Assembly: GCA_001687465.1 (NCBI GenBank)
Contig: LVLI01000335.1
Location: 1 to 29,889 of the forward strand
DNA: 29,889 nucleotides
Source: Halocafeteria seosinensis
Lineage: Eukaryota > Sar > Bigyra > Bicosoecida
Direction: 5' to 3'
The position numbers and the translations under genes were made by a program. Of the stretch, positions 1,050 through 29,889 are shown piece by piece. Positions within the stretch are counted from its first letter, which is position 1, and every line of letters starts with the position of its first letter. Below the pieces are notes generated by a model. The model saw nothing but the letters and a program-made list of their open reading frames with translations, was not told where the DNA came from and ran no database searches.

Positions 1050-1137
1050 ACAGCGGGCCCGTCGCTGCTTAACACGGGCGCATACCGCTACTCATTAAGA
1101 GGATGCGGTCAACTCCCCGGCCCGTGGGCTATCTGTC
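1050..1137 (-). mobile_element. hAT-like miniature element, 88 bp, with 8-bp target duplication
   Basis: This complete 88-bp copy is inverted relative to the other copies in the window. It is flanked by a perfect 8-bp direct repeat ACCTGAGG (1042-1049 and 1138-1145), read as a target-site duplication. On its own strand it begins GACAGATAGCCC and ends GGGCCCGCTGT. The ends form an imperfect 11-base terminal inverted repeat, ACAGnnnGCCC, with 8 of 11 matching. Inside are a CCTC/GAGG-type hairpin (imperfect here) and GCCCGT/ACGGGC. An 8-bp duplication with CAG...CTG ends is typical of hAT transposons. With no coding capacity it would be a non-autonomous MITE. Assignment to hAT is inference. Confidence 0.7.
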
Positions 1138-1238
1138 ACCTGAGGGGTGGAAAGTTTCGGGGGAAAAGACAGTTTGATCGGGGTGCTAGATAGCACTTGC
1201 AAGTTGCAGTTTATGGATTATGTTAGTATTGTTTGTCG

Positions 1239-2435
1239 ATGGTGTACGCCGAGCAAGGGCTAGCGGCACATACCGTTGAGGAACGGTACAGAAGGATTGG
1301 TGGCATACCGAGATACATATTTGAGAAGCCACATGCGATTGATGCAATAGTGGATGACGCTGTGAGGGGAGTATATCCACTGGACGTGATGAAAGACACT
1401 GGCGACCTTGGTTATGTAACTGTTGGCGAAAGGGAAGAAAAGGTGACGTTTAAGGCTGTACAATTTTGGCACCGCAAGGGAGATGACACGTATAGTTACG
1501 AATTTGGCAGAGCGAGGTATGCTTCTCAGGAAATTATGGACAGACTGTTGAACAACTGGGGTGCGATGGAGTGGCAGAGAGTCTTGGACGTTATCTTCAA
1601 GAGTGCAGGAAACGCTTATATTCGTGGGAGATATTTTGAGGGAGCTATGCACAAATTGATCCCGCAGCGCGCTTCTAAAGCCCCTCTTCGTGAATTTCCA
1701 AACGTTGTCAAGCTGGTTTACGGGGATGATGGATGGGAACAAAAGGCCAAGGAGTCAACTCTCTTTCTGCCAACAAGCAAGGAAGAAAAAATTTTCGGTA
1801 CTAAAATTGACAATGTAGTTGCAAAGGCGATTAATGTTCGCGAGAACGGGTTTGATGGTGTTTACGGCAAACCTACGATGAAGATCTTTGAAACAGTGGA
1901 TGCTATCCTTGTTACGAGTGCTATGGCAGGCAACGTGTTCCAGTTTCCACTTCTGCTTTTTCAATACACCGTTTCTAAACGTCATACGTTGAAGATGGCA
2001 GGAGTAAATAGTCTATGGAAGCAAGTGCGCCACCACTACAAAGTAGGTCGTGGATACCGGTATCCTCATTTCTACTTCATGGTCCCTCAATATCAATGCA
2101 TCTTCCTCCCTAATGCTCCGAAATACTCGAAGAAGGAAAAAAAGGAAGAGAAAACATTATTCAAGAAGATGACGTTCCACGTAGTTTTCGTTGACAGAGG
2201 TAAGCCTCCCAACGAGGAGTAACAGCAGCAGAAGTAATGAGCGTGTGTATCATGTACTTCGTATGTTTTGCTTTTCCTTGCAGATATGCTTACTCCAGAG
2301 TTTGAAGACCAGCCGCCGGGAGAAATCGACGAGAGTGACGAGTCAGCCGATGAAATGGGTGAAGGGACAGAATATGACACGGAAGAAGAGACGGATAGCG
2401 AATTGGATGAATCGGAAGATACAGATGATGAATAG
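1239..2435 (+). CDS. Crinkler/RHS-like protein, C-terminal part, two exons
   Basis: Predicted 370-residue protein from exons 1239-2199 and 2284-2435; the intron 2200-2283 has ends gtaagc and ttgcag and is phase 1. Motifs typical of Crinkler / retrotransposon-hot-spot proteins appear in family order: GGIPRYIFEKP near the start, RGRYFEGAMHKLI in the middle, FQYTVSKRHTLKMAGVNSLW, then HFYFMVP. Family members usually carry a P-loop NTPase followed by a nuclease-like region, and some are secreted effectors. Here the NTPase is absent: the first ATG comes just after an in-frame stop, and a miniature element lies 100 bases upstream. The gene therefore looks 5'-truncated, or lacks an upstream exon I cannot find. 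Splicing adds an unusual acidic tail of about 50 residues rich in D, E and S. Family call is good; whether the gene works is uncertain. Confidence 0.65.
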
Positions 2436-2620
2436 GAAGATGCGAATAAAGAGTCGGCGGAAGAGATGACTCTATAGTGCGCCCTGCACGCCGTGCATAA
2501 ACAATACTTCTACACCCTCCCGCATAAGCGGTTAGGCTTAGTCTCCCAAACCAACGCATACCTTTATATGACACGCTCTTACGTACTTCTGGTGCATGTC
2601 GGAGACCCCACTTGATACAG

Positions 2621-2735
2621 CATTCACGTACACACACAAATGTGACAGATAGCCCACCGGCCGGGAAGTTGACCACATCCTCTTAACGAGGAGCGGTAAG
2701 CGCCCGTGTTAAGCAGCGACGGGCCCGCTGTTCCT
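2621..2735 (+). mobile_element. Miniature element copy, tandem unit 1
   Basis: The 88-bp core runs from 2644 (GACAGATAGCCC) to 2731 (GGGCCCGCTGT). It is preceded by the CA-rich leader GCATTCACGTACACACACAA seen also near 981. No 8-bp target duplication is visible at the core edges. The leader motif GCATTCACGTA recurs at 2736-2746 in front of the next copy, so this copy and the next form a head-to-tail tandem pair. Confidence 0.6.
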
Positions 2736-3149
2736 GCATTCACGTATGTCCACGATAGACAAACACTTATTTGACAGATAGACCACCGGCAGGGCAGTTG
2801 ACCGCATCCTCTTAACGAGGAGCGGTATGCGCCCGTGTTAACCAGCGACGTGCCCGCTGTTCCTGCAGGAGATGCGAAACTTCCGCATGCTGATGACGGC
2901 GAAACTGTCAGTCACCGTGTCACGTTGATGCGCCACGACGTGAAGATGTTGGACCGGTCCCGGATGGGGTTCACCCCTCACACGGCTTAGCATAGCCTAC
3001 CATGTATGGCAGACACGTCTTCCGGTAGGAACAGTACCAATACACACCCCCTGCAGCCTTGCTGCCATGTGCCATGAGGGAACGCAACACTGGCTTTGCT
3101 AAGGAGGCATCGGGGGAGGCGCGCCATGCGTGCGCCAACGAAGTCAGGA
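2736..3149 (+). mobile_element. Miniature element copy, long form, tandem unit 2
   Basis: The 88-bp core is 2773-2860, with several substitutions against the other copies. Unlike the 88-bp form, homology to the polymerase-embedded copy resumes from CCTGCAG at 3050 through GTCAGGA at about 3149. The 188 bases 2869-3056 are absent from the polymerase copy. CCTGCAG occurs at both 2862-2868 and 3050-3056, so the shorter form can be derived by deletion between these 7-bp repeats, or this one by insertion. I see no protein-coding gene in it. Confidence 0.5.
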
Positions 3150-3953: not shown

Positions 3954-5890
3954 TTATCCTTTGATAACCGAGATGGGACGCATCTTAATGCACTTCTTGC
4001 TGATCCCAGCCTGATGGCATGTGTCAACAACTTGGTCAACGTCTTTATAGCTCTCGGGCGCTTCTTCCATGACAAGCTTCGGGGAGGCAACTCGAATACT
4101 AATTCCCTTTTCTTGCAAGTGTTCAAGAACCTCCTTGTAGTCCAAGGATCTTCTTGATTTCGCTCTTGAAGAGGCTCGCCCGGCCCCATGGCAAGTCGAG
4201 CCAAATGTTTCTTTCATACCTTTTTCAGTTCCAGTCAGAACGTAAGAGTTCGTACCCATTGTACCTCCGATTAAGACAGGTTGCCCGGTGAACTGGTAGT
4301 CTACGGGAATGAGCGGGTGCTGAGGTGGGAAGGCACGAGTGGACCCTTTCCGGTGTACGAGCAACTTGCGAGGCCTTCCATCAATCATGTGCTCCTCGAT
4401 CTTGGCAATATTGTGAGACACATCGTAAACTAGATGCTGCATCGCGCGTATTCGGGGATCATGCACGGTTGAGCAACAAGAGCTTACAGGCTAAAAAAAG
4501 AGAAGCTTACCATGTCCAAGTCATCCGGGCTGCTGTTAAACATTTTTGCAAACGCTTGCCGGGTCAAAAATGTCATCGTCGAGCGATTTAACCATGCGTA
4601 ATTGGCTGCTGCTGCCATACCGGCCAGATAATCCTGTCCTTCTTGACTGTTGATGCGTGAGCAGGCAAGCTGCCTGTCGTTGGTCTGGATTTTATCTCTA
4701 GCCATAGCAGTCTCCATCTTTTGTAGTGCATCTGTCGCTACTTGATGTCCCATCCCCCTGCTTCCACAGTGGAGCATGACGCAAACTTGACCTTCACGTT
4801 CTATTCCCATACGCGCCGCGGCATGCTTGTCGTATATTTCATCCACCACTTGGATCTCTGCGTAGTGATTCCCAGCTCCAAGAGTTCCCAACTGTGGCAG
4901 TCCTCTTTTCTTCGCTCGTTTCGACACCTGTGCGTGTAGTAGTTTACCTACGATCATCAGTATACATTCATCAGCAGATAAGTCAACGAACGAACCTTGC
5001 TCGGATCTGCGCTCAACATTCTCCCATACTCTTCGCAATGTTCCTTGTCTTCTGCCCATGCATAGCCGGCTCGAAGGGCCCAATCAATTCCCATCTCCTG
5101 CAAAGTGTGTAGAGCAAATAACCAGCTCTGCAAAGGTGTGGAATGCAATGTACCCTTACCAATCCAGCTTCCAAGTCTGCCGCGGTCATAGGGAGAATGC
5201 CTTTGGATCCCACTCCGACAGGAATATGATCAAACAGCGATTGGCTGAGTTCTTCCTTGACTGGAAGCACATCTTTCTCGTCCAAATTCGTGCGAATCAG
5301 CCGCACACCGCAGTTGATATCGAACCCCACACCACCTGCGCACCACCATCGAGGAATCCAAAATAAAAAAATAAAAATTTCAGACTGATTCCATTCCTGC
5401 CTACCTGGTGAGACCACTGCCTCAGGATCTTCCATATCGACTGCAGACGCGAAATAATGCGGTGATGGAGCATCATCATTATCATGCGAGTTACCTACAG
5501 GCTGCTACATTTCCAATGGCGAAGCCGTACCCAGAGTGCACGTCAGGGAGTCCGATCGATTTCTGCGGTCCATATTAGTACACACAATGAACCCTCCATT
5601 GTAAATGTACGTGCTATCAGCTACCATACATTGACGATGCCAGGGAGACTGGCAACATTACTGATTTGCTTCATGGCGGGCAGAAAGCCTCCCACATTCT
5701 TATGTCTCGAATACTGCTCTAGCTCCTCAAACATTAATGTACGCAGTTTGTCGTTGACGTAAAAGGTCCCCTCGACATTCATATTGGGGACGAAGCCCTT
5801 CTTGATCCGGAACTCGCAGGGGGACACTTGCTCCACATACTCGAGCTCCTGCTCGTAGGTACGCACCACGCTGTTCGTGTTAGTCGCCAT
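3954..5890 (-). CDS. RTCB: RNA-splicing ligase RtcB homologue (tRNA ligase catalytic subunit)
   Basis: RTCB joins tRNA exon halves, and in animals also XBP1 mRNA, through a GTP-activated 3'-phosphate. I place seven exons: 5890-5630, 5562-5499, 5440-5405, 5335-5160, 5097-4996, 4927-4511 and 4436-3954. They join in frame into 512 residues, close to the 505 of human RTCB. Introns are 58-75 bases. All have AG acceptors and GT donors, the weakest being gttcgt after exon 5. Visible conserved blocks include [98 protein letters not shown] and [15 protein letters not shown]. These include the metal- and guanylate-binding Cys, Asp, His and Lys positions. The start is MATNTNSVV because the alignable N-terminus begins there. 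It appears intact. Confidence 0.95.
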
Positions 5891-21506: not shown

Positions 21507-21813
21507 CTTTGGTCCTATAGTGTCGAACACAGTTCGCAAGCTGCACAAGAACAGCATACCCATCACGATTGATCTCTACAGCTCATTACACACGTTTTCC
21601 AAACATGTTATGCAATTTGAGCTTCATTGTTCCCACGTTTTTTATATCCGTGGGATACTTCTAGTACCGGTAGTCGCCCACCGGTTTGTCAAACCGAATT
21701 CGCTTCTTAGCAAGCTCTGCCACCAGAACTTTCCCCCACAGAGGCACGCATAGTGAGGGCAGAGCAGAAGGCTCAAAATGTCCAAACTCAGCATACGCTA
21801 CTACGACGAGTCA

Positions 21814-22857
21814 TTACCTTTTCTTCTTCTTAGTGGACCGTTTCTTCTTCTTTTGGGCGTTCGTTTTTTCTCCCTTCGCCCCACAGCTGATTGAAGGATC
21901 AGCGGAGATATTCCGCATCGCATTCATCATCCGAAGCCAATCCTCCGGCATGGCCTCTGCTGCGCAAAATGATGCCCCGGTGTTCCATCCCAAGCATTCA
22001 AGTACATCAGAGAGGTTGTTAGAGTATTGCAGTAACTCTTGTAATCCCGCGGCCCGCTGATATTGTTCCTCAATTTGCTTTACACTTTCTTCTAGATCAT
22101 CAGGTGTGTCAGCATCCGCATGTACCTGCGGCTCAGGTTCCCAAAGTCTTTCGATGCATACTTCCCAGATCTGCTGAGCAACATCTTTCCATTGTTGCTC
22201 GTAGATTTGTTTGATATCAGGATCAGAAATGCCTCTCGTCTGCTTCTGTAAAAGGGTTTGGATCTTTGGTACCTCACAGTGCGAAACAGTATCGAATTCC
22301 CGTTGCAGTTGTTCCAATTTTATTTGCTTCTGCTGACGCTGAAGCAACGTAGCCTTTTCACGTTCAGCTTGCTCCAAAGCTTTGTTGAGTTCTTCGTCCT
22401 CCTCTGCTGTTGTAGCAACATAGGTTGGAGCGAAAGTGCCAGTCTTGGATTTCTCTGATGTCTGAGATTGGGAGGACTGGGGGGCCACGTTCTGTCGTGT
22501 CCCGGGTGCGGACATTGAGCCAGCTTGACCGCTCCTTTGTTCACGAAAACGCACTTTAAGCTCCTGGAGTAGTTCGCCAAGGAAAGCGCGGACAGCAGAT
22601 GCAGTCTCAGGAACACTACATTGTACCCTTCTACCGTAGTGCCGTAGGCAACGGCAAAATTCAAGTGTATCCGTGACGCCGTCCGAGGTTTCTGCGATTA
22701 CACCAGCCAAATGATCAGCAATTGCATACGCATTTGCCCTCCATGAGGATGCTTCATTCGTAGCAGTCGCTGATAGTCCTTCCACCATGGCTCTACAGAG
22801 TAGCTCCAATACAGCATAGTCGACTCTGCCCGTCACCATAAGAACGTTCTCTACCAT
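21814..22857 (-). CDS. Unidentified protein with coiled coil and lysine-rich tail
   Basis: Intronless, 347 residues. Residues 1-105 are helical and hydrophobic (DYAVLELLCRAMVEG, ANAYAIADHLAGVI), followed by a Ser/Gln linker. A charged coiled coil occupies about residues 150-210 (EELNKALEQAEREKATLLQR), and a second helical region extends to about residue 320. The end is KKKKRSTKKKKR, a likely nuclear or nucleolar signal. I do not recognise the family. The start codon is only about 4 bases from the left edge of the AT-rich polymerase island, so the promoter and leader must lie in island sequence or the N-terminus has been lost. Confidence 0.6.
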   Translation of the reverse strand: MVENVLMVTGRVDYAVLELLCRAMVEGLSATATNEASSWRANAYAIADHLAGVIAETSDGVTDTLEFCRCLRHYGRRVQCSVPETASAVRAFLGELLQELKVRFREQRSGQAGSMSAPGTRQNVAPQSSQSQTSEKSKTGTFAPTYVATTAEEDEELNKALEQAEREKATLLQRQQKQIKLEQLQREFDTVSHCEVPKIQTLLQKQTRGISDPDIKQIYEQQWKDVAQQIWEVCIERLWEPEPQVHADADTPDDLEESVKQIEEQYQRAAGLQELLQYSNNLSDVLECLGWNTGASFCAAEAMPEDWLRMMNAMRNISADPSISCGAKGEKTNAQKKKKRSTKKKKR

Positions 22858-23935
22858 TCTATAAATATTGTGTTTTTATTCTTTATGTTCTTTTCAAATA
22901 AATCAATTTTTAAATGAACATTTTTTTTAAAAAACCCAAGATAGAAAAATGATTTAAAGTTTTTTTTGTTAATATAGGAAATACACACAAAAGAGAAATG
23001 GTAACAGTAGCCGAATTAAAGCTAAAAACAAAGCGTCAGCTTGTTCATATATACCGTCAATTAATACAACAAGGACGTGTTCCGGTCAAGAATCAAAGTT
23101 GGTATAACCAGTCCAATAAGGACACATTAGCGAAAGCCATTCAACCACATTATCAAAGCCAGTTGGGAGTAAGTGAAATTTTATCCAGTCGTCAGACGAC
23201 TAAAAACCAGCTTATCCAATTGTATAACGAATTGCGAAATGAAGGGGCAGATATACCTAATTTAACTCCAAGAGGATTAAAAGACCTGACCAAGTCTCAA
23301 TTAGCACAGATGTTGAAAACGCGATTAGGACAACGAGAAAGAGAACATATTTTGAACAATATTACTAGTTTTCGGGTAGAAAACCCGATATTTAAGTATG
23401 AAGAAGCGTTTTCCTATGTGCCTAATACAGAAATGGGGGATTTGAATATGGTAGAAAGGCGATTTTTGCTGGATAAAGATTATCGGGTCTTGTTATACGG
23501 TATTGATTTAGAAGATTATCAACAATTTTACCCAGAACAACGTAGCATTGAAGATTTGGCACAGACACTAATGAAACAAATTGACCGATATGGAATAAAC
23601 CTTGGATATACTCACGGCTATATTCGGTTAATATTGGTCAATCCCCATGTTGAAGAAGAAGAAGGGGAAACGGCAACGATAGTAAAGAATTTATTTGCGG
23701 AACACTTGGCTTTGAATGAGATTAATGAACAGGATATTTTAAATGCGTTACAGATGTTAGCTGATGAACATAGAGATAATGAGATGTATATCTCGTTTGT
23801 TAGTGGATATGAACTCGGTTTTTATTCACCAGAAAGGGCGGGTGGTTGTCATGTGGGGCAGAGAGAACAGAAGTGTAACAAGTTTGGGTATTCTGTTTAT
23901 AGACCGCAACAACAATCAGCGAATAATGACTGTGC

Positions 23936-24050
23936 GATTCGTTGATTTCAAAAATTCTGTCAATGCCCCAAAATAGGAAAAGGAAGGAGGGAAGGAGAAA
24001 CTTGTATTCGTTGCCTACAACAATGCTGTCAATGCCCCAAAATAGGGATA
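23936..24050 (+). repeat. In-frame 69-bp tandem duplication in the polymerase
   Basis: TGTCAATGCCCCAAAATAGG occurs at 23958 and again at 24027, exactly 69 bases apart, with diverged flanks. Both copies read C-Q-C-P-K-I-G in the polymerase frame and are preceded by A/C-I-R. The first copy has TGA where the second has TGC (Cys). The unit therefore duplicates a Cys-rich segment without shifting the frame. The divergence between copies shows the duplication is not recent. Confidence 0.7.
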
Positions 24051-25610
24051 GAAAGGAGATGTGCTAAGATTCGCAGAGATTGTGGTTTAGCTAAAGGAGA
24101 ACCTGTGACACTAAATCAATTAGAAACTTTAGCGGAATACGGAAAGGTTAATATGCAGGTGTATAATAGTGATAAAGAACTGATAAAGGAGATTAATAAT
24201 CCGAATGCTGAGGCTGAGAGGCCGTTAAAATTGCTATTAGACGACGGTCATTATGATATAATTTTGAAGGAAGTTGAAGAAGCTGTTGAATCCGTGACCT
24301 GTTCAATTTGTGGCCAGACAATGAAAAAGACATCGACTCAAAGGTCGCATACTTGTCGGAGTTTCATAGCATATAACGCCAATCGTCAAGGTCACAGTTT
24401 TATGTATCACAGGAAAAATCAGCACGTGGAGGATTTAATACCAGACGATGATAGTTATTCGTTGGATTTTGAAACGTTTCCGATGGAAAAGGGAAATCAT
24501 GAAGTATATGCTTGCGGAATTGCTCAAGGGAGAAAAGAACCGACTATATTGGATGGAACATATCAGGGTGAAGCATTGAAGAAAACGGTAGATTATTTGC
24601 TGAATATTGATAATCCGAAGAACCAGAAACTATATTGTGTGGCGTTCAATGGGAGTTGTTATGATTTTCACTTTATTTTTGGAGATTTGGCTTCACGTGG
24701 GTATCAGTGTCAAAATATTATTCAAACAGGGCAAACGGATATATCGCTTTACATTACCTGAAAGTAATTTAACCTTTTGGGATTTATCGCTACATTTAGC
24801 GGGTAGTTTAAAGAAATGTTTACAGGAGTTTGATTGTGAATGTGCGAAAGGGGATTTTGACCATAATAAAATTAAGAACTATTAAGATGTAGCAACTTAT
24901 AGGTCAGAATGGTTGCCTTATTTAGAACAGGATGTGCGGGGTTTGGCGGAACTGACAATTAAATATCGTCAAACAATCAAAGAGGTTTTGGAAAAGGGAA
25001 GTCTACGGTTTATTGAACCACTACATAACGTTACTTTACCGGCAATGTCAGAAGTTATTTGGCGAGCGACGGTAGAACAAATACCGATAGACAGCACAAG
25101 ACAGTCAAAGTTAAAACAATTAGTTCATATTCCACGAGAAGAGAAGCTGATAAGGAACATTCTTAGTGCTACTTATGGAGGACGCGTATGCCCACAAGTT
25201 AGAATGTATGTTAGCCAAGATTGGAACAAGTTTGAAAATCTTTATCGTGACCAGAAGAATGGGGTTCAAAATCAGGAAGAAGTTAAAAAACTATATCAGG
25301 AGTGTCAAGACTATTTATTCAAAGGGGATATTACCAGTTTGTATCCATCAGCAATGCGATTATTTGAATACCCCTTAGGAGAGCCGATACTATTGAAATC
25401 AGGAGAATATGAAAAAATAGCAAGGAGTTTGAATGAAGGAGAAAAGCAAGATGAATTCTATTTGTTAAACGTAGATATGGAATCAACTAACAGAAGCTTT
25501 ACAGTAAGCCCAATACCTCGTCCCAAGTATGACCATAGGAATAAGCGGGTTGGTCTTGATTGGAATATTGAGGATATCAAGAATAAATGGTATAGTCATG
25601 TAGATTTGGA

Positions 25611-25803
25611 TGACAGATAGCTCACCGGCCGGGAAGTTGACCACATCCTCTTAACGAGGAGCGGTATGCGCCCGTGTTAAGCAGCGACGGGCCCGCTGTT
25701 CCTGCAGCCTTGCTGACATGCGCCGAGAGGGAGCACAGCACTGGTTAAGCTCAGGAGGCATCAGGGGAGGAGCCATGCCTGCGCCCACAATGTCAGAGGA
25801 ACC
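25611..25803 (+). mobile_element. Miniature element inserted in the polymerase gene
   Basis: This 193-bp insertion starts TGACAGATAGCTCACCGG and contains the family's 88-bp core (to GGGCCCGCTGT). It then continues through CCTGCAGCCTTGCTG to GTCAGAGGAACC, which matches 3050-3149. A perfect 8-bp duplication, GATTTGGA, flanks it (25603-25610 and 25804-25811). Element plus duplication is 201 bases, so the polymerase frame resumes unchanged after it, although the element itself carries TAG at 25618-25620. The right end extends beyond the 88-bp form, so two length classes exist. Confidence 0.8.
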
Positions 25804-26525
25804 GATTTGGAATTGGCTATACGTCACGGATACCAAATTACAGCTGTTAATGAAGGTTATAAGTGGCGAGGTAGTGGTCGAATATTTGACCAGTTTGTTG
25901 ATTTGTTTTATGAATTGAAATCCAATGAAGATGCGAAAGAAAAACGAGGAGAACAATTCAATTCATCACTGCGAAAGACGGCAAAAAGCATATTAACTAA
26001 TTTGTATGGGAAACTGTTAGAAAAAATACACAATGAAGAAACAGAAATCATATTAAATCAAGACAAGTTCAAAACGTTTTTCAAAGAGCACGCCTATATA
26101 ACGGAGATTAGTTATTTGTCAAAAAAAGCATTGGTAACAGGAGGAATAAATCAAAAAGAAAGGGCAAAGTTGAATACTAAACCATTTCACATAGGAATGT
26201 TTTTATTGAGTTATTCACGTAAGATAATGCCAGAATTGATGGAGTCGATAGACCCGACCTTATCAAGTCATTTTTTCCCTTATACTGATACTGACTCGTT
26301 GTCGATTCCAAGTCATTTAATATCACGATTGGAAGGGAAAATAAACCCATATACGGGTAGAGAATGGTTATCAACAGGTTTATGTGGATTTGTGAATGAC
26401 TATAAAAGAGATGGGAAAGTTTTATTAGAAAAGGCGTGTAGCCCGAAGAATTATTTTGACATTGTAGTAGATTGTGACGGCAATTTTAAGGAGAGTTTCA
26501 AATAAAAAGGAATTCCACTAAAGCT

Positions 26526-26829
26526 GCGTATCCGTGCAACTTCGCCAGTCTACCGGAGCTCATGCACCTACAGCAGCTAATTTAGCATCCATCTGAAGGC
26601 ATGATACGATACCAATATGAATGAAAAAGGGTGGGAACCGATTGTTACACGAACAATCCGATGATTATGGTGCTTTCTGACCGATCTTCCGGGTCTCTCT
26701 TCTTGGCTCTCGACTTCACAGGAGTACCAGGTAACCTGTACCTTTTTTGCCCCCTGTAGTCTACCGCTTCAAAGTTTCCGGACTCAACTCAGACTCAAAA
26801 AGTTACCAGTAAAGCCTCCCGCAGGAGCG
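26526..26829. other. Spacer between island and repeat region
   Basis: Composition returns to the genomic average at about 26525. No gene is visible. An imperfect palindrome CAGGTAACCTG lies near 26728. Confidence 0.4.
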
Positions 26830-27310
26830 TGAGGAAGTCCCTCTGAACGGAGGGGATTACGCATTTTTGATGCCGTCCGCTAGGAGGACCTTTCGCGCAA
26901 GCGCGATCCTGATGAATGGATGTCCGCTGGGAGGACCCTCGTACCAAGTGCGTTCCTCTCGACGAGGGGGTTCCTGCCAGAACTTCCTGGAGTCATCCGC
27001 TGCAAATCCCTACTGATAGAATTGATTTCCCCTGGGAGGACCCGCTGACGAGGGAGTTCCTGCCAGAAGTTCCTGGTGACATCCTACTGATAGAATCGAT
27101 TTCCGCTGCAAGGACCCTCCGAAGTACGTGGAAGTACAGTGTACCACGTTGCTGGAACGCGACTGGCTGCAAGGCAAGCGCGAACCTAATGCCATCCTCT
27201 GGGAGGACCCTCTTACCAAGCGTGCTCCTCTCGAAGAGGACGTGCTGATAGAACTGATTTGTCGCTGGCAGGATCCTCCGAAGTACACGTTGCTGGAACT
27301 CGACTGATAC
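26830..27310 (+). repeat. Degenerate tandem repeats (GGGAGGACCCTC type)
   Basis: Related units of about 70-105 bases recur. GGAGGACC-like words occur near 26883, 26930, 27033, 27200 and, altered, at 27108 and 27269. CTGATAGAAnTGATTT occurs at about 27013, 27087 and 27246. GTTCCTGCCAGAAnTTCCTGG occurs at 26969 and 27056. On the plus strand many units read W-E/Q-D-P, as in VRWEDPRTKCVPLDEGV and LWEDPLTKRAPLEEDVLIEL, so they may descend from a coding repeat, now broken. No family is recognised. Confidence 0.55.
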
Positions 27311-27399
27311 TGGACCAAGAAGTCCTTCCTGCTTGCTAATGCACTGGCCACAAGTTGAGTCTGTGTGATGTGTATTGTTTGCATGTTTGCTAGATGTAC

Positions 27400-29889
27400 C
27401 AGAGGTCGAAAATGAACGTTCATCCGGCGTCTTGTAGTCAACTTGTGGACAATGAATGTAGTACAGACTGTACAGTGTAAACTCCTTTCGTATTTTGTTG
27501 AAGTTCCAGAACAGAGACTGTCTACGAGAGACAGACGGAAAGACGTTGACAAGTAATGTGTTGTTGTGTAGGCCGGAAGGAGAAAACGTTATGAATAGAT
27601 GAGGAGTGCCCAAGGCTGCTTTTAGGCCGAAGACCTGTTTGCGATAGTTTACGCGTTCTTCCGGAGAGTTAAACATGTGTTTTGACGCAATCGAACAATG
27701 ATGGAGGAGCGATAGAGCTTTTCGTACTTGGGCATTTTCTGGTGGAGGTGGAGGAGTCTTTCCTTGTTAAAGGTGTTGTTCTCGCGACCCTTTGTATTCA
27801 ATTGCTTGGTGTAACGACTCCTGAGTGAGTTGGCTGAATTCTTGGAATCGTTGTCCTGGCAGTGTAAGTAAGGCTGCCTGGGTTGCATTTTTCCGCGAAA
27901 GTTGGTCAAATGCGTATGAAATGAACGTCTTGTTTTGGAATTGCTTAGAGCTAACCCGCAGCAAACGTTTGTAGATCGATGCGTCAGAGAGAGGTACCCT
28001 TCTAGTTTCGTCAAGTCCGCCTCTCCCGAAAGGGAACAGCGTTGGAAAGATTTTTGTGAGGTTGTCCACGTGATACTGGGGAACGAACTTGCCAAGCTTT
28101 TGAACAAATGCATGAGAAAAGTGTAAAAAAGTGGGTCGATGCGAAGGGTTTGTGTGTACCATGTCTCGGTGTTCAAGCTGCTCGTCGCTCGGTATGGGGT
28201 TCGCGTGGTTGTCCTGATGAGTTTTCGTGGACTTGGAGGCGTCAATGTGTACCTCTTGAAGTACGCGAGTTGGGAGAGAAGTGGATCGGTCAATGGAGTT
28301 TTCCAATTCTTGCAGGTTTGGTTCGCTGAATTCAATATTGGCGTAGTGTTGATGATGCTCGCGCAAGAAGTGTATCGTTCCTGTGACGTTTCGAATACGC
28401 ACTTGACAGAAGTTTAAGCTATCCCATTTGTGAGCAAGGCTTTGCAAGTTTTTAGCCGAAATAACGTGTATCGACTCCAATGCTTGTAAGTTTGGCAACT
28501 GATTGACTACCTGCTCTATTGGAGCCTCCAAAATTGCGACATGGGACTGCAGATTTGATTGATGGCTCTGAAGTGTTTGCAAAATGAAACGCGGAACAAA
28601 TATAGAACAAAGCCGTCTTTCCATTTCTGTAAGGTCTTCGAGGGATCGAGGAAGCGAACCGATTGCATTGTTGTTAGCTATTGCCAGAGGGGGGAGCGTT
28701 CCATTCAGCATGTGGCTACTGCATGTCTTGCACATAAAGACGTATCCTCCGGAGACTGCTCGAGGACTTAACAAGAGAGAATCAAAGTGCTCTTTAGCTG
28801 TTGCACGGGGAATGGATGTCGTCTGCATGACGATCGGAACGATGTTATAGTCATTGAGCAGCAAAGGATCAAGTGTCGGCGTCAGAGCATTCGCATGTAG
28901 ATGATGTTTCATAGTGTCGAGTATATCGCTTTGTAGCAACTGCCGAACGGGCGTCCAGTCTCCTTCAGATGTTGTGTAGAGCAAATCGCAGATAAGACAT
29001 GCAAATTCCAATGCTTTTGCAGGACTGAAGTCTTGTTGGATATCGCGGACGAGGGCATCATAGTCACGAGGTTGAACATATTGATTTTTGCTGTGAAGTT
29101 CAATCAGTCCGTCAACATAGGTTTCCTTTACGGTCTGATACTTGTGAGGACAATGCCGTTTTGCTGCTCGTGTATTATATAAAAGATTGCTCATATGTCG
29201 TTTGTGGCTCTTCAGTCGCTCCGGATAGTCTTCTCCCCATTCTTGCTTACTGCGGCGAAGAATTCGATCCCTAGCGAGCTTGCTTTGTCGTTGTAGTTGT
29301 TGTGAACTGTCCTCCGAATAAGTGACATTTGGTGTACCGAATACAAATTCAAGCAAATGAAGGTAAGCGGGATCATCGAATGCTTGCTTGGGATTGTTTC
29401 TACTATAACGAAGGAACTGTTCGTCTATTTGTGAAGTGTTGCAATGCCACGATTTGCGATATAGAAACTCAAGGGCCTTTTCCATTGAGTGAAACTGTTG
29501 ATCAATGCTTTGTAGTAGTAACTTCCTTATATGTCGTTTGTGACTCTTCAGTTGCTCGGGATAGTCTTCTCCCCATTCTTGCTTACTGCGACGAAGAATT
29601 CGAACGCTAGCGAGCTTGCTTTGTCGTTGTAGTTGTTGTGCACTTTCGTCCGAATAAGTGACATCTTGTGTACCGAATACAAACTCAAGCAAATGACGGT
29701 AAGCGGGATCATCGAATGCTTGCTTGGGATTGTTTCTACTATAATGAAGGAACTGTTCGTCTGTTTGTGAAGTGTTGCAATGGTACGATTTGCGATATAG
29801 AAACTCAAGGGCCTTTTCCATTGAGTGAAACTGTTGATCAGAGATTTGTAGTAACTTCCTTATATGTCGTTTGTGAGCCTCTAGTTGGT
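27400..29889 (-). pseudogene. Helitron Rep/helicase-like protein, N-terminal part, frameshifted, open at window end
   Basis: The largest frame runs from beyond 29889 to 27767. It carries tandem 112-residue repeats (about 29215-29889), then a DUF6570-like region with GGYVFMCKTCSSHMLNGTLP and IGSLPRSLEDLTEMERRL (near 28740-28620). Then comes a Helitron-like N domain beginning FPTLFPFGRGG (~28030). The protein continues in a second frame (KERLLHLHQKMPKYEKLYRS, about 27770-27690) and a third (MFNSPEERVNYRKQ, then GTPHLFITFSPSGLHN to about 27570). Two frameshifts near 27790 and 27675 therefore break it. Downstream Rep HUH and helicase motifs are not seen before the degenerate repeats, so the C-terminus is missing. 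Helitrons move by rolling-circle replication. Family call is good; a live copy should exist elsewhere. Confidence 0.8.
29215..29889 (-). repeat. 336-bp in-frame tandem repeats inside the Helitron protein
   Basis: TCCATTGAGTGAAACTG lies at 29481 and 29817, exactly 336 bases (112 codons) apart. GGATAGTCTTCTCCCCATTC recurs with the same spacing at about 29222 and 29558. Two nearly complete units are visible and a third begins at the window edge. The encoded unit contains EKALEFLYRKS, NPKQAFDDPAY, HLLEFVFGT and RILRRSKQEWGEDYPE. Small substitutions separate the copies, and the frame is open throughout. Confidence 0.8.

What the first reader, a model, noticed from the sequence alone, without database searches (positions are those of the whole stretch)
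22861..26525. Relic of a protein-primed DNA polymerase from a linear plasmid or virus, lodged in nuclear DNA
An AT-rich, intronless block with exonuclease and polymerase motifs of the organellar/viral family B type lies among GC-richer, intron-bearing host genes. The N-terminus has SAP-like repeats and a Cys-rich segment, an arrangement I cannot match to one known plasmid or virus. It may represent an undescribed linear element of this host lineage.
Basis: partly seen in the sequence, partly recalled or inferred. Interest (0 to 1): 0.75.

Follow-up and report, generated by a model that had tools for sequence, protein, structure and literature searches.

The report
Broken virophage-type DNA polymerase gene remnant
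A decayed piece of a DNA-copying gene from a small integrated virus, most likely a virophage-like one, is stranded in the DNA of a small-genome eukaryote that also carries better preserved relatives; it is a real and instructive relic but of a known kind.

Summary
Window 22,853 to about 26,526 is an AT-rich, intronless, broken gene for a protein-primed family B DNA polymerase. Its pieces, searched apart, are 65-85% identical to one intact 1,161-residue environmental protein, P0003, from its first residue to residue 1,078, or about 1,086 by eye. Apart from the helical units and the motif, this is the layout published for virophage and polinton polymerases (PMC11071308). The copy is inactivated by stops, a frame change, a duplication, a 192-bp SINE-like insertion with an 8-bp direct repeat, and C-terminal loss. 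The same 30.6-Mb genome has polymerase matches on 12 contigs and virophage major-capsid matches on 18. The relic's nearest kin there, on C71 and C526, sit beside Sputnik-type capsid genes. Both junctions cut through other repeated sequences, so it is a rearranged fragment. Best reading: remnant of an integrated virophage-like virus, a new member of a known kind. Linear-plasmid origin is not supported. Read coverage and the host's name could not be checked.

The parts
22853..22997 (.). AT-rich stretch between the cut multicopy ORF and the polymerase start; probably viral upstream DNA (inference)
   Evidence: Left repeat ends at 22852; the P0003-like frame starts with the ATG at 22998
22998..23360 (+). 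Two tandem SAP-like helical units (protein residues about 1-121)
   Evidence: Internal repeat, 11 of 5,000 shuffles reach the score; helices from H4-7 to H99-121 in the AF2 model
23430..23840 (+). Terminal-protein domain with little-finger/PAD-like fold (residues about 145-281)
23845..24270 (+). Viral OTU protease domain, interrupted by a stop and an internal duplication; the Cys and His of the conserved columns are still present
24298..24360 (+). Zinc-finger-like C-C-H-C motif between OTU and exonuclease
   Evidence: Columns C411, C426 invariant and C408, H424 at 90% or more in A4; P0003 itself lacks the first Cys
24440..24970 (+). 3'-5' exonuclease region, with a change of frame at about 24,735-24,745 and a stop at 24,883-24,885
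   Evidence: Pieces w2, w2b and the start of w3 against P0003; frames
24886..25610 (+). Last exonuclease motif and polymerase palm, first part (motif A)
   Evidence: PF03175 E 2.2e-16; 73% to P0003
25611..25802 (+). 192-bp SINE-like interspersed repeat inserted in the gene
   Evidence: 41 places listed, the window's own included (40 of 423 candidates scored); 39 of the 41 are 94-98% identical; 8-bp direct repeat GATTTGGA on both sides
25803..26526 (+). Polymerase palm, second part (motifs B and C), with a stop at 26,503-26,505 and loss of about the last 75 residues
   Evidence: PF03175 E 1.5e-14; 84% to P0003 up to its residue 1,078, a few residues more by eye; next repeat starts at 26523
21695..22852 (-). 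Left neighbour: truncated copy of a multicopy ORF (493 aa in the copy on C381), cut at the junction
26523..26724 (.). Right neighbour: roughly 200-bp repeat, cut at the junction
   Evidence: Copies on C69, C81, C310, C116 at 91-96%; the three copies fetched (C69, C81, C310) run on past the junction point, by eye
26805..29889 (-). Roughly 737-bp repeat, then ORFs with Helitron_like_N and DUF6570 matches

Best explanation
It is a dead fragment of the replication gene of an integrated virophage-like virus (phylum Preplasmiviricota). In living relatives the protein is inferred to work as published for this class: the terminal-protein domain carries the first nucleotide and primes synthesis at the ends of a linear DNA genome, the OTU domain cuts the primer domain free (a hypothesis of the paper too), and the exonuclease-polymerase extends the strand. 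Such an element was probably integrated by its retrovirus-type integrase; this copy was then cut at both ends by rearrangement among repeats, lost its frame and received a SINE-like insertion. Shown: gene identity, likely domain folds, lesions, repeat-cut junctions, relatives in the same genome. Inferred: integration route, order of events, and that the parent element had a virophage capsid.
For: P0003 matches each of the five pieces at 65-85%. Terminal-protein-like fold in the window piece and OTU fold in the intact C71 relative. phi29 polymerase is the only strong hit among solved structures, E 1.7e-11. Trees of two separate pieces (SH-aLRT support): window with P0003 at 100, inside a 4-row clade with C71 and P0001 at 96 (w4) or a 5-row clade with C71, C526 and P0001 at 99 (w3), inside a 12- or 13-row clade at 99 and 100. 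C71 has a Sputnik-type major capsid match; C526 has that, a V18/19 minor capsid match and an rve integrase with a chromodomain. Elements of the same broad kind adjoin GC-richer DNA on C345 and C294 and an HSP90 ORF on C447.
Confidence: 0.78

Rival explanations
1. The parent was a polinton-like virus with a different capsid (as on C429: A32-type ATPase, VLTF3-like factor, integrase; similar ORFs by eye on C294 and C447), not a virophage.
For: C294, C429 and C447 carry polymerases of the same 12- or 13-row clade and rve matches; on C429 neighbours match Pox_A32 and Pox_VLTF3; none of the three has a Sputnik-type capsid match.
Against: The window pieces group with C71 (and C526 where it could be placed), which do carry Sputnik-type capsid matches.
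Confidence: 0.15
2. Relic of a cytoplasmic or mitochondrial linear plasmid.
For: Cytoplasmic linear plasmids share the TP-vOTU-polymerase layout (PMC11071308, passages).
Against: The nearest kin in this genome lie on contigs with capsid and integrase genes. No plasmid polymerase was placed in the trees, so this is indirect.
Confidence: 0.03
3. Assembly chimera: viral sequence misjoined into host DNA.
For: Both junctions cut through other repeated sequences; reads could not be inspected.
Against: The block carries a repeat that is spread through this genome, with a direct repeat on both sides, which implies residence in host DNA, and it is decayed.
Confidence: 0.04
4. A host gene recruited from a virus and still working.
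For: Motif residues are largely kept: of 178 columns conserved in eight relatives, 138 are kept by both the window and P0003, 8 changed only in the window, 4 only in P0003, 28 in both (one-sided p 0.19).
Against: Stops, a frame change, a SINE-like insertion and C-terminal loss; the kept residues also fit recent inactivation.
Confidence: 0.01

Closest known systems
Protein-primed polymerase (pPolB) of virophages such as mavirus, and of polintons, as dissected in PMC11071308
   Same: Terminal-protein domain of little-finger fold, vOTU with Cys and His, exonuclease, palm with family B motifs
   Different: A tandem SAP-like helical pair at the N-terminus and a zinc-finger-like motif after the OTU, neither mentioned in the passages I read; this copy is broken and truncated
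Endogenous virophages and polinton-like viruses of protist genomes (PMC10120064; passages only)
   Same: Multicopy virus insertions with capsid genes in a microbial-size eukaryote genome
Environmental protein P0003 (1,161 aa, 4.1-kb contig, source ena)
   Same: 65-85% identical across the five pieces
   Different: Intact; neighbouring genes not available
phi29 DNA polymerase (1xhx and others)
   Same: Only strong sequence match among solved structures (E 1.7e-11)
   Different: phi29 has a separate terminal protein and no OTU domain (recalled)

Membership tests
Virophage/polinton-type pPolB | Family B polymerase domain (PF03175) | tested here: met
   E 2.2e-16 and 1.5e-14 on two pieces
Virophage/polinton-type pPolB | Fused N-terminal terminal-protein domain of little-finger/PAD fold | tested here: met
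Virophage/polinton-type pPolB | vOTU domain with catalytic Cys and His | tested here: met
Virophage/polinton-type pPolB | TPR1 and TPR2 insertions | tested here: inconclusive
   Profile matches phi29 residues 249-397; the insertions were not mapped
Virophage/polinton-type pPolB | Working open reading frame | tested here: not met
   Stops, frame change, insertion, truncation; this makes it a relic of such a gene
Virophages (Maveriviricetes) | Sputnik-type major and minor capsid genes in the element | not testable with these tools
   Parent element not preserved. Nearest kin C71 and C526 have the major capsid match, C526 the minor one
Virophages (Maveriviricetes) | Packaging ATPase and cysteine protease genes | not tested
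   Not sought on C71 or C526
Polinton-like viruses | PLV-type capsid in the element | not testable with these tools
   Parent element not preserved; the capsid candidate of C429 (509 aa) has no Pfam match at E 0.01 or less
Linear plasmids | Capsid-less linear replicon with protein-primed polymerase | not testable with these tools
   Parent element not preserved; no plasmid reference was placed in the trees

The most novel reading that the evidence does not exclude
The relic belongs to a distinct polymerase lineage with a tandem SAP-like front end, shared in one host genome by two kinds of integrated viruses: virophage-capsid elements (C71, C526) and elements of the C429 kind (VLTF3- and A32-bearing; C294, C429, C447). 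That would mean the replication gene has moved between capsid lineages inside this host, and the relic records a third branch that has no other copy in this assembly.
Probability: 0.35. Interest if true: 0.5.

Novelty: new member of a known kind. Interest (0 to 1): 0.3.

Why it matters
It identifies a fossil of virophage-type infection in a host that still carries relatives with open reading frames, so decay, SINE-like insertion and replacement of virus lineages can be followed in one genome.

Tried and rejected
Linear plasmid origin: not supported by the company the relatives keep. Helitron capture of the fragment was considered because Helitron-type ORFs lie to the right; no second copy of the fragment was found and a 200-bp and a 737-bp repeat lie between, so it was not adopted. 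RNA-family origin of the 192-bp repeat: one Rfam match in the block, far below its cut-off and outside the repeat, and folding no better than shuffles (z 0.08), so it is called SINE-like only. A multiple alignment of its copies used the wrong parts of the loci and was useless; redone. The N-terminal piece had no match among phage records. Three scans of viral contigs gave no relatives, which shows only that those short patterns found none. The Rfam SSU search for the host failed twice and an rRNA pattern found nothing. An HSP90 ORF beside the C447 element resembles animal forms best among solved structures (organisms recalled), which does not name the host. Neovahlkampfia was considered because PMC10120064 reports 21 virophage capsids there (passage) against 19 matches here; this is no identification.

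In one search piece w4 was translated in the wrong frame and gave no match; corrected. One search finished the w4 tree (84 rows, mixture model, quick search) and then ended with an error before the w3 tree; one search built the w3 tree (85 rows) with the simpler LG+G4 model. C526 was dropped from the w4 tree (under 100 residues in that region). The polymerases of C524, C217, C589 and C337 were not put in the trees, and of C447 and C531 only one ORF each.

Full report
What is there. Two pieces of the block match DNA_pol_B_2. An intact environmental relative of 1,161 residues, P0003, came from a search with residues 330-1250 of the C71 polymerase (77 hits among 2,443 candidates). All five window pieces, searched apart, match it at 79, 65, 85, 73 and 84% identity. 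The match starts at that protein's first residue and runs to residue 1,078; by eye about eight residues more can be followed after a stop. GC is 0.36 without the insert, against 0.48 and 0.47 outside.

How it is broken. By description only: stop codons at three places, a change of frame within the exonuclease region, a duplicated stretch (53 nt, 85% alike, 69-nt spacing) in the OTU region, a 192-bp repeat with an 8-bp direct repeat on both sides, and loss of about the last 75 residues. The same repeat is spread over the genome: 41 places listed, the window's own included, after scoring 40 of 423 candidates; 39 of the 41 are 94-98% identical.

Junctions. On the left, the neighbour is a copy of a multicopy ORF cut at 22,852. 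Of three other copies found (C381, C194, C244), two (C381, C244) run on past that point with the same sequence; the C194 match stops earlier. Nothing elsewhere in the window matches the missing part of the C381 copy. On the right, a roughly 200-bp repeat begins at 26,523; the three other copies fetched run on past that point, by eye. Beyond it come a 737-bp repeat and ORFs with Helitron_like_N and DUF6570 matches (that DUF6570 goes with Helitrons is recalled). No element terminus was seen. The fragment therefore lies in a rearranged, repeat-rich stretch.

Relatives in the same genome. PF03175 matches lie on 12 contigs, the window's included (22 matches, one of them, on C337, below the cut-off). 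Sputnik-type major capsid matches lie on 18 contigs (19 matches). C71 and C526 are in both lists. C526 also has a V18/19 minor capsid match and an integrase with a chromodomain. C294, C429 and C447 carry polymerases of the same clade and rve matches. On C429 the neighbours match Pox_A32 and Pox_VLTF3 over the cut-offs, while rve and Chromo are below theirs in the protein scan and rve is just over it in the genome scan. C345 and C531 are a separate polymerase group in the trees; C345 carries an Endonuclease_7 match below its cut-off.

Trees. Two trees were built from separate pieces: w4 with 84 rows and w3 with 85 rows and a simpler model; support is SH-aLRT. In both the window pairs with P0003 (100). 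In the w4 tree this pair joins C71 and P0001 (4 rows, 96); in the w3 tree it joins C71, C526 and P0001 (5 rows, 99). The clade holding C71, C294, C429, C447 and the window has 12 rows (99) or, with C526, 13 rows (100); the rest are P0001-P0007.

Age. At 178 columns conserved in eight relatives (at least six present), 138 are kept by both, the window alone changed at 8, P0003 alone at 4, both at 28 (one-sided p 0.19). Third-position GC is 0.28-0.33 in the pieces, against 0.23-0.24 in four relatives of the genome. Both fit a lineage that was working until fairly recently, but neither dates it.

Function. The mechanism given for living relatives is taken from PMC11071308 and general knowledge of protein-primed replication. 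The relic itself cannot make the protein.

Limits. Host unnamed; reads not available; parent capsid type inferred from kin; genome counts are lower bounds by the tool's own statement.

Noticed in passing
G000 contigs C19, C448 and others: Of 18 contigs with Sputnik-type capsid matches, 16 have no PF03175 match; C448 has an AEP_C962R primase-type ORF and an integrase, C19 a DUF5906 ORF, so other replication modules seem to be in use.
   Followed up: partly
L020 (C217:66000-75900), around 5338-5532: A second broken polymerase, unlike the window's, holds the same 192-bp repeat, also flanked by TTGGA-containing sequence by eye.
   Followed up: partly
L017:3851-5176 and L019:1-2091: Laminin G/concanavalin-type ORFs on virus-like contigs, possibly fibre proteins.
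   Followed up: no
L055:273-1802 (C429): A 509-aa candidate capsid (guess from position and size) without Pfam match; six environmental relatives, 45-85% identical, among the 7,999 candidates scored.
   Followed up: partly
window 27770-29887 and 26996-27766, minus strand: Helitron-type ORFs (DUF6570, Helitron_like_N) with a 336-bp unit present twice at 29193-29876.
   Followed up: partly
window 1050-3147: Four further partial copies of the 192-bp repeat.
   Followed up: no
L014, L011, L012: ORFs that look like GIY-YIG endonucleases (by eye only) beside the polymerase genes.
   Followed up: no
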